A DNA stretch of 64,000 nucleotides, from assembly GCA_032622095.1 (NCBI GenBank), contig CP136066.1, forward strand, positions 172,483,164 through 172,547,163, written 5' to 3'. Shown here one piece after another: positions 15,901 to 18,900 of this stretch (position 1 is the first letter of the stretch; each line of letters starts with the position of its first letter). The DNA is from Siphonodentalium dalli (lineage: Eukaryota; Mollusca; Scaphopoda; Gadilida; Siphonodentaliidae). The notes below the pieces were generated by a model. The model saw nothing but the letters and a program-made list of their open reading frames with translations. It was not told the origin of the DNA and searched no databases. The position numbers were made by a program, and so were the translations under genes.

Positions 15901-18900
15901 ATTATAATCCTTGTCTGGACATTGAAGACCGCATTTACTTACCCAACGCTGTTAAACAAAAGAGAGTCAACGTTGTGTCAACATTTTGTCACTGTTTGAC
16001 TCACAGGCGATATATTCCTAATTGATTTGTAACACTATAGCGTGCATGGCTTAACGCTTGGTACAGCCGTCGGCTAATTTGGGGTTTATCTTTTGAAATC
16101 GGGAGATTTGGTTTCCCGATCGGGAGCACATGAGAAATGACACAAAATCGGGAGACTCCCGCCGAAATCGGGAAAGTAAACAGGTCTGGTTATCATCTGC
16201 TTTTACAAGAGACTGGCTAGGCTCTAGTTCCAGAGCTCATGAACTTATCTAACCTTAGATCTGTGAGGTCAGTGTTTTTTATATCAACATCATCAATTAC
16301 AATCTGTCCGAGCTCTATTTCCACCATTCGGAACAGACACACAAAAAGACTGGATTTTCCCGAGCCAGTTCTGCCAACAACACCAATCTTCTCAGCCGGT
16401 CGAACGGAGAATGACACGCCGCTCAGAGCATAAGGTAATCCAGCTCTGTACCGCAAGTAAACATTTTTAAATACAATCACACCTTGCCTTGGCCAGTTAG
16501 ATGGAATCTGGAAGAGTCATATGAAGTAAGATTACAAAGATATTTACAGCATGGTTAAAGCCACACATCGTGTTCAAGCCTTTATTTCAATGTTTTAACC
16601 CTTTCTATACTGAATGGATTTTCCTCACCCAGTTATAACAGTATATATCGGAATGGAACATTATTCAGTTGGAGGGAATGTTCAGGAAAAATGAGCATAT
16701 GACACAGTTGAAAAGATAGTTGAAGTGCAGAAGGATTACTATTCACTAGTGGGAAATGTTCAGATAATAAGTATGACTTGAGCTTCCTGAAATTTTGCGA
16801 AAACCTTGTGCCAATGAATTCTCTTATATATGCAAGTCTCCCATAGGGAGCCTCACATATATAAGAGAATGCATTGGCCTAATAATATTTACCTGTACCA
16901 TGTAAGTGAGTGCATTCTCTTATATATGCGAGGTACCCCATTGGAGACTCGCATATCAGAGAATGCACTGGCACAGGATCTTTAATGCTGACCAGCGCAT
17001 TTCCCGTCATGAAAGGGTTAACCACTAGGAACTACTCATTAATGAGTATTTAGTATAGAAAGGGTTAATCATGAAATGACTGGGTACTTAGTGATTAAGT
17101 CTGGCACATCCTGAATTCAATTATTATACACATACTCAACTTTTATAGTAAATCAATATTTTCTTTATTCTTTTTTTAGACAAGAATTTGATCAGAGATG
17201 TGAAGTTGAGATGCGGTGGCTTCGTGAATCATGGGCTTTGATTGAAAATGCATTAATCGTAACTAGCTATCATACACAACACTCTTAAGGAAGTCTGACA
17301 TACCAAATATTCCCGCGTGAACCAACCTCACCAAATATATTATGCTATCGCAATCAAAATGCATAATAAAGAACAAACTAAGAACTCTGTCTCTGCACAA
17401 AGTTGGTGGCGTTGGCCAGTTTTCGAACTCGACCAAGACATAGTTGAGAAAGTAACACACTTTTAAAAATCAGTTGATATTTGTTCAAGTTATCTTGATA
17501 TCGTGATAAAAATTCACAAAAAAGAAATAATTGAGGCTTAACTCTGCCAAATTTAACCTTAAACGGGACTTTCTCATATGAAGACCATATATGAAGTTTC
17601 ATCAAATTCTATTAAATACTTTATTCAAGTTATCTTCCGGACAAGAAATTCTAACTAAAAAGAGGGCATTACTCCAAAAGAAATGGTCGGACCGGACCCG
17701 TATTCAAACTTGATCGGGACTTTCTCATATGAAGCCCACATACCAAGTTTCATAACATTCTGTCAAATATTATTCAAGTTATCATCCGTACAACAAAATA
17801 ATCTGCATATTCTAAGTCGAAAAGGAGCATAATTCCATCGGAAATGGTTGGACTAAATCCCAATTATTCAAACTTGACCTGTATTTTCATTTAATTAATC
17901 CACATATAAGATAATAATAATTTGAGATATCATCCGGACAACAAAATAATCAGCAAATTCTAAGTCGATAAGGGGCATATCTCAGCCAGAAATGGTTAGA
18001 CCAGATCCAAATTCGAACTTGATCGGAATTTTCTCATATATATGAAGGCAATATCCAACATTAACCTCTTCACTGCTGAATGATGTCATGTGCTGGGCCG
18101 TTGACGTTCTTGACATTTTGCAGTGGAAAAATATAACGGGAATGTCACGAAAACCAAACAACTGACTTCATGCAAAGGCTATTATCATACACAATCCTAG
18201 AACATCATAGAGTTTTAGAATCGTTGAGTTGTACTCATTCAGTTGAAATATTTCTGAGTTCACATTATGACTGATGGCCGCCTGCTAGTGCGCTGAAGTA
18301 GGTCCTTACAACAAATGTTTCAAACGGACGTACAGACAGACGGATAATGCTCATTTCTATCATCCTTTTTTTTCTTCTTTTTTCTTTTTGGGTCTTAATA
18401 AAAGTCACCAATTCAACGTCAATGGAAGCATAAATGACCATATGGGGTCTAAATTTAACTACTCATGCACCCAATGTGAACATATCTTTATAATGGTCAT
18501 TTCAATAATAAAATACCTGGTGGCTCAGGCTATATCTTTTCATTTTCACACAACAGGTCGACATGGATAATAATAATCTTACCTTTACTATCCCAGCCCA
18601 TTTCTCATGCGGGACAGAATCTATATAATGTTGTATCCTCTCCACACAACAAGTCAACATGCATAATAATAATCTTACCTTTACTATCCCAGCCCATTTC
18701 TCATGCGGGACAGAATCTATGTAATGTTGTATCCTCTCCACACAACAAGTCAACATGGATAATAATAATCTTACCTTTACTATACCAGCCCATTTCTCAT
18801 GCGGGACAGAATTTATGTAATGTTGTATCCTCTCCACACAAACCATTTGTTTCTCTGTCTCTGTGAATGAACTAACTACCCCGCTCAGCAGATTGGTGAT

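What the first reader, a model, noticed from the sequence alone, without database searches (positions are those of the whole stretch)
18547..18865. In-frame triplication of an ABCC10 exon end together with its splice donor
A 96-bp unit (32 codons) is repeated three times. Each unit contains the coding end of exon 14, an identical AAAG|GTAAGA donor and intron bases that stay open in frame. All three donors leave phase 0, as exon 15 requires. The gene could therefore make proteins with 0, 1 or 2 extra 32-residue blocks between the last TMD2 helix and NBD2, a mechanically sensitive linker. Copies differ by only a few bases, so the event is recent or is being homogenised.
Basis: partly seen in the sequence, partly recalled or inferred. 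Interest (0 to 1): 0.8.

Follow-up and report, generated by a model that had tools for sequence, protein, structure and literature searches.

The report
Splice donors caught in tandem repeats
A gene for a membrane pump carries three copies of an exon's end with its splice signal; similar repeats turn up at several percent of the exons sampled from this animal's genome, so most likely the first signal is used and the rest leaves with the intron, which makes this a natural test of how splicing picks a site rather than a switch between protein forms.

Summary
The triplication is real: 96 bp x3 at 18547-18841 (minus strand), three identical AAG|GTAAGA donors (last exonic bases 18775, 18679, 18583), all phase 0, read-through open. 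The isoform reading is not supported, though not excluded; no RNA could be examined. (1) The first-donor product aligns without a gap to ABCC2 over 136 residues; the extra donors would insert 32 or 64 residues. (2) The same gene has a second donor-spanning duplication, 32 bp x2 at 48691-48754, where only donor 1 keeps frame. (3) The event belongs to a class: of 228 exons sampled from the same assembly, tandem arrays span the donor at 12 and the acceptor at 5. In 13 independent donor arrays the second donor is in frame in 4, and in frame and open in 2: no bias towards frame, so extra copies are probably not in mRNA. (4) Introns of 877 and 2267 nt flank exon 14; in minigenes under exon definition, identical strong donors gave exclusive use of the upstream one (PMC9225289). 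The class, with up to 14 tandem donors at one junction, is the interesting part.

The parts
18775..18935 (-). exon 14 (161 nt) in its first-donor form: end of TMD2 and start of the linker to NBD2
   Evidence: acceptor CATCACCAG|GTTTGG, donor AAAG|GTAAGA, peptide matched to ABCC chains
18746..18841 (-). 96-bp unit 1: last 67 exonic bases + first 29 intronic bases; donor after 18775
18650..18745 (-). 96-bp unit 2, donor after 18679; 3 differences from unit 1
18554..18649 (-). 96-bp unit 3, donor after 18583; 5 differences from unit 1, 4 from unit 2
18547..18553 (-). TTGTGTG remnant equal to the start of every unit: 7-base microhomology at the array edge
16254..16507 (-). exon 15, start of NBD2, phase 0 acceptor CTCTTCCAG|ATTCCA; intron 14 is 2267 nt
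48728..48890 (-). exon 3 (end of TMD1), first donor CAGG|GTAAGT, phase 1
48691..48754 (-). second donor-spanning duplication in the same gene, 32 bp x2; donors after 48728 and 48696, the second shifts the frame and meets a stop in exon 4
46773..46918 (-). exon 4, whose start (TTGACAG|ACCCTG) fits the frame of the first donor of exon 3 and not of the second

Best explanation
This is one member of a class of splice-junction tandem arrays found at many exons of this genome. A short tandem duplication happened to cover the last 67 bases of exon 14 and the first 29 of the intron, and was repeated once more. Shown: the array, the donors, the frames, and the class in the same assembly. Inferred: the spliceosome defines exon 14 across the exon, pairs its acceptor with the nearest (first) donor, 18775, and removes copies 2 and 3 as intron. 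Because copy 1 keeps the whole exon end and donor, the duplication is almost neutral, which is why unit lengths in the class show no preference for multiples of three.
For: First-donor product aligns gap-free over 136 residues to ABCC2 (8rq3) and, by match coordinates, within 1-2 residues to MRP1, ABCC4, ABCC5 and SUR1 chains. Exon 3 of the same gene has a 32-bp donor duplication that only donor 1 resolves in frame. Of 228 sampled exons 12 have donor-spanning and 5 acceptor-spanning arrays. In 13 independent donor arrays the distance to the second donor is divisible by 3 in 4, and in frame without stop in 2 (exon 14, L148); only exon 14 is open to every extra donor found. In 35 extra donor copies GT is intact in 34; core positions (-1 to +5) differ from copy 1 at 4 of 210 against 31 of 795 outside the donor window (Fisher P=0.21): extra donors look neither purged nor clearly protected. 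Kinesin paralogues carry at least 7, 14 and 11 donor copies at one junction; two myosin paralogues share an out-of-frame 67-bp copy. Introns of 877 and 2267 nt flank exon 14; minigenes with identical strong donors 52 nt apart and 365-nt flanking introns used the upstream donor exclusively (PMC9225289, abstract and passages).
Against: No transcript was seen. Exon 14 is the one array of 13 in which every extra donor is in frame and open. The class is uneven: donor arrays at 8 of 80 kinesin exons, 0 of 50 SNF2 exons, 0 of 20 in a replicate. PMC9225289 also reports that over all human alternative donor pairs about 60% favour the downstream site, and that weakened donors led to exon skipping in its larger exons.
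Confidence: 0.83

Rival explanations
1. The three donors are used alternatively and give transporters with 0, 32 or 64 extra residues between TMD2 and NBD2.
For: Units divisible by 3, identical donors, all phase 0, no stop in either extra unit; the three exonic differences between copies are 2 silent and 1 Asn/Asp (read by hand).
Against: One in three such arrays is in frame by chance, and the class shows 4 of 13; the solved ABCC chains compared have at most 2 more residues there, not 32 or 64; exon definition favours the first donor.
Confidence: 0.08
2. The last, intron-proximal donor is the main site, so the normal protein carries 64 extra residues.
For: The intron-proximal rule of Reed and Maniatis, as described in PMC9225289.
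Against: The last donor seen would shift the frame or follow a stop in 12 of the 12 other independent donor arrays (some arrays run beyond the fetched stretch), including exon 3 of this gene.
Confidence: 0.03
3. Assembly artefact: copies inserted wrongly by the assembler.
For: Only one assembly was available; tandem repeats are a known trouble spot (recalled).
Against: Copies carry private base differences; unrelated loci have unrelated units; paralogues differ in copy number.
Confidence: 0.04
4. Intron gain or resplicing through the duplicated AG|GT: a 96-nt mini-intron from one AAAG|GTAAGA to the next, regenerating the donor.
For: Each unit has AAAG|GTAAGA, so a cut from donor 1 to the AG of unit 2 would be silent.
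Against: That AG has no pyrimidine tract in front of it (by eye); the intron ends 2267 nt away at a normal acceptor outside the array.
Confidence: 0.02

Closest known systems
Cross-exon proximity rule for competing 5' splice sites (Carranza, Shenasa and Hertel 2022, PMC9225289; abstract and passages read)
   Same: Identical donors tens of bases apart, longer flanking introns, upstream donor expected
   Different: There: a database of human alternative sites and engineered minigenes; here natural arrays of 2 to 14 donors in an animal genome, usage not measured
Intron gain by tandem genomic duplication of AGGT (e.g. potato RdRp, PMC4974935; search listing and start of abstract only)
   Same: A tandem duplication containing AG|GT
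   Different: Here the duplication straddles an existing donor and the intron runs on to its own acceptor outside the array; no new intron is bounded by the copies
Minisatellite/VNTR arrays
   Same: Head-to-tail units (27-127 bp in the junction arrays seen here), copy number differing between paralogues
   Different: The first (donor) or last (acceptor) unit is part of a conserved exon
Tandem repeats and untranscribed duplications in earthworm metallothionein genes (PMC12783039; passages only)
   Same: Minisatellite-like arrays in an animal gene; [quoted passage not shown]
   Different: The passages place the arrays in the first intron; I saw nothing there on arrays spanning donors
Alternative 5' splice sites (extended exon ends)
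   Same: Several usable-looking donors at one exon end
   Different: Lengths do not favour the reading frame across the class

Membership tests
ABC subfamily C (MRP-type) transporter | ABC_membrane and ABC_tran domains, two nucleotide-binding halves | tested here: met
   PF00664 71.1 bits on exon 1; PF00005 38.7 bits on exons 14-15 and 41.9 bits on exons 3-5, all over cut-off; best PDB matches are ABCC2, ABCC5, MRP1 chains
ABC subfamily C (MRP-type) transporter | Walker A and LSGGQ signature in frame | tested here: met
   [16 protein letters not shown] and LSGGQ read in frame by eye
ABCC10 (MRP7) orthologue | Closest relative is ABCC10 | not tested
TMD0_ABC scored under its cut-off (19.2 against 27), MTABC_N over it (36.5 against 29.1)
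Alternative 5' splice-site isoform switch | Extra segment in frame and open | tested here: met
Alternative 5' splice-site isoform switch | Two or more donors used in transcripts | not testable with these tools
   no RNA data reachable
Intron gain by tandem duplication | New intron bounded by the duplicated AG|GT copies | tested here: not met
   intron 14 ends at CTCTTCCAG|ATTCCA, 2267 nt on, outside the array
Splice-junction tandem array (class described here) | Array covers an exon-intron junction, with the first donor unit or last acceptor unit continuous with the exon | tested here: met
Splice-junction tandem array (class described here) | Unit lengths unbiased with respect to frame | tested here: met
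   4 of 13 divisible by 3

The most novel reading that the evidence does not exclude
In this genome tandem duplications do not merely tolerate splice junctions, they concentrate on them: within 200 bp of the sampled exons 16 of 29 independent arrays straddle a junction, against 11 expected from random overlap (P=0.03) or 5 if the junction must fall in the edge unit (P=2e-6, a null chosen after seeing the data). Either a duplication process acts at exon-intron borders, or spare splice sites are retained because they help exon recognition, with splicing reliably taking the exon-proximal copy out of up to 14.
Probability: 0.25. Interest if true: 0.75.

Novelty: new variant of a known kind. Interest (0 to 1): 0.5.

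Why it matters
Which of several equal splice sites is chosen has been tested with engineered minigenes (e.g. PMC9225289). Here nature has run that experiment at several percent of the sampled exons, with 2 to 14 near-identical donors or several acceptors per junction and with the reading frame as an independent read-out. It is also a warning for gene annotation: extra copies can be mistaken for alternative exon ends.

Tried and rejected
Rejected: a mini-intron or recursive splice site from the duplicated AG|GT (no pyrimidine tract, by eye). Rejected: a close paralogue sharing the array (the 439-bp query found one place; exon 1 found itself and 12 weaker matches at 26-48% identity).

Tried without gain: naming the species. 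The assembly has 9 contigs of 190-301 Mb, 2.23 Gb; mollusc or other lophotrochozoan is a guess from recall. Searches on mollusc and chiton genomes and passages of PMC12005716, which mentions a nine-chromosome chiton, do not tie it to this genome. Searches for such arrays as a class showed none in the titles and abstract starts listed (52 listed nothing); I looked at passages of two listed papers, PMC12783039 and PMC5896119, and saw no donor-spanning arrays. Absence from print is claimed no further than that. A Pfam scan of a stop-masked kinesin region found nothing.

Sampling, as done: of the matches listed I fetched 80 of 123 kinesin, 50 of 73 SNF2, 14 of 19 ABC_tran, 6 of 11 E1-E2 ATPase, 45 of 48 ABC_membrane and 33 of 85 myosin, picked by eye (higher scores first, obvious paralogues and multi-exon matches dropped where seen). 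L119 was taken after I had noticed that its list rows looked tandem; its region covers three listed matches. Without it acceptors are 4 of 227.

Rows dropped or reclassified: L118 and L175 hold arrays beside, not across, a junction and count as intronic. L158 and L024 (low complexity) were left out of the enrichment test. A first run of that test misfiled L069 (13 of 21 spanning, P=0.046); corrected it is 14 of 21, P=0.015, and with all 228 exons 16 of 29, P=0.03. The nulls use hand-entered array lengths, with about 100 bases added where an array ran off the fetched stretch. Junctions were assigned by eye. L038/L040 count as two of 12 donor arrays but one of 13 independent ones. L007 and L018, from the window gene, are among the first 58 exons. 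L210 is a 3-base stretch fetched by mistake; L211-L213 are paralogue look-ups outside the 228.

Full report
What is there. On the minus strand the window carries an ABC subfamily C transporter gene: I located 17 coding exons, with 16 donors and 12 acceptors placed exactly, from exon 1 at about 55.9 kb to the last coding exon at about 12.7 kb. Exon 14 (18935-18775) ends inside a 96-bp tandem array, 18547-18841, three units with 3, 5 and 4 pairwise differences, each with the same AAG|GTAAGA donor, last exonic bases 18775, 18679, 18583. The exon 15 acceptor is in phase 0, so all three junctions keep frame.

What the first donor gives. Joined through 18775, exons 14-15 align without a gap to ABCC2 (8rq3, residues 1234-1369) and, by match coordinates, within one or two residues to MRP1, ABCC4, ABCC5 and SUR1 chains. 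Donors 18679 and 18583 would insert 32 or 64 residues there. The first donor thus gives the usual length. The two longer products were not searched themselves.

A second case in the same gene. TRF also reports 32 bp x2 at 48691-48754. It duplicates the end of exon 3 and its donor, at the matching place in the first half of the protein (after the last TMD1 helix, before NBD1; by eye). The first donor (48728) continues into exon 4 in frame; the second (48696) shifts frame and meets a stop in exon 4. In all, 2 of 16 located donors and 0 of 12 located acceptors of this gene lie in an array; exon 14 itself is the case that drew attention.

A class in the genome. I sampled exons found by Pfam models in the window's own assembly: 58 central exons of 3-kb loci (ABC_membrane 30, myosin 28), then 150 exons with 200-bp flanks (kinesin 80, SNF2 50, ABC_tran 14, E1-E2 ATPase 6), then 20 more ABC_membrane and myosin exons as a replicate. 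An ungapped tandem detector (units 12-260) plus reading by eye gave donor-spanning arrays at 3 of 58, 9 of 150 and 0 of 20 exons, and acceptor-spanning arrays at 0, 5 and 0: 12 and 5 of 228, or 5.3% and 2.2%. The detector found 21 arrays in the 150 regions and none in five shuffles. Rates differ by family: 8 of 80 kinesin exons and 0 of 50 SNF2 exons have donor arrays. Exons were picked by eye from the match lists and many are paralogues, so the percentages are rough.

Frame as a read-out. For 13 independent donor arrays (exons 14 and 3 included) the distance from first to second donor is divisible by three in 4, and in frame without stop in 2; only exon 14 is open to every extra donor. If extra copies were usually translated, nearly all should be in frame. 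So extra copies are probably intron, and exon 14's open frame is an expected coincidence: it is also the case a reader would notice. GT is intact in 34 of 35 extra donors; core donor positions (4 of 210 changed) do not differ significantly from other positions (31 of 795, P=0.21). Extra acceptors keep AG in 10 of 17 (Fisher P=0.0009 against donors), but 5 of the 7 losses are in one paralogue fetched later, L213; without it 9 of 11 are intact (P=0.14). That contrast is a lead, not a result. Kinesin paralogues have at least 7, 14 and 11 donor copies at one junction; two myosin paralogues share a 67-bp out-of-frame copy.

Mechanism. Introns of 877 and 2267 nt flank exon 14. In PMC9225289 (abstract and passages) identical strong donors 52 nt apart with flanking introns of 365 nt gave exclusive use of the upstream donor, and human donor pairs of similar strength with long flanking introns lean the same way; with short introns, and over all pairs together (about 60%), the downstream donor is favoured. 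I therefore expect 18775 to be used and copies 2-3 to leave with the intron. That step is inferred: no RNA was available.

Are junctions a hot spot? Within 200 bp of the sampled exons 16 of 29 independent arrays straddle a junction; random overlap predicts 11 (P=0.03), and 5 if the junction must fall in the edge unit (P=2e-6), a null chosen afterwards. Against a hot spot: arrays cover on average 8.7% of the 58 3-kb loci, and 13-17% at 0.9-1.4 kb from the exon, more than the 3.7% of junctions hit (17 of 456), although paralogue clusters inflate that figure and coverage within 300 bp of the exon is only 2-3%. Plain abundance of tandem repeats plus tolerance may suffice.

Verdict. Observation confirmed; isoform reading not supported though not excluded; the lasting point is a class of splice-junction tandem arrays that offers a natural test of splice-site choice.

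Noticed in passing
18517 (minus strand): A further, weaker donor-like CAG|GTATTT downstream of unit 3, also reached in an open frame at phase 0.
   Followed up: no
49853-52476: A block of about 1.3 kb appears twice in tandem (matching ORFs offset by 1323) inside the intron between exons 2 and 3.
   Followed up: no
61736-63075 (plus strand): ORFs resembling a non-LTR reverse transcriptase (motifs recalled, not searched).
   Followed up: no
7356-9278: A 164-bp x 12 array containing AAATCCAAGATGGCTGCTGGCGGCC, similar to the 148-bp unit at 37443-37727.
   Followed up: no
L119 (C6:220293935-220294708): SNF2 exon whose acceptor and start are repeated at about 127-bp spacing; upstream copies also hold GGTAAA donor-like sites and could act as pseudo-exons.
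   Followed up: partly
L132 (C5:237645058-237645586): ABC_tran exon with its acceptor duplicated at 27 bp, in frame and open by eye: an acceptor array that could add 9 residues.
   Followed up: partly
L148, L211, L212 (C7): Kinesin paralogues differ in number of tandem donors (at least 7, 14, 11): a copy-number series for a splicing test.
   Followed up: partly
L213 (C5:65387700-65388250): SNF2 paralogue of L208 in which 5 of 6 extra acceptor copies have lost AG; extra donors elsewhere keep GT. A possible sign that upstream acceptors are costly.
   Followed up: partly
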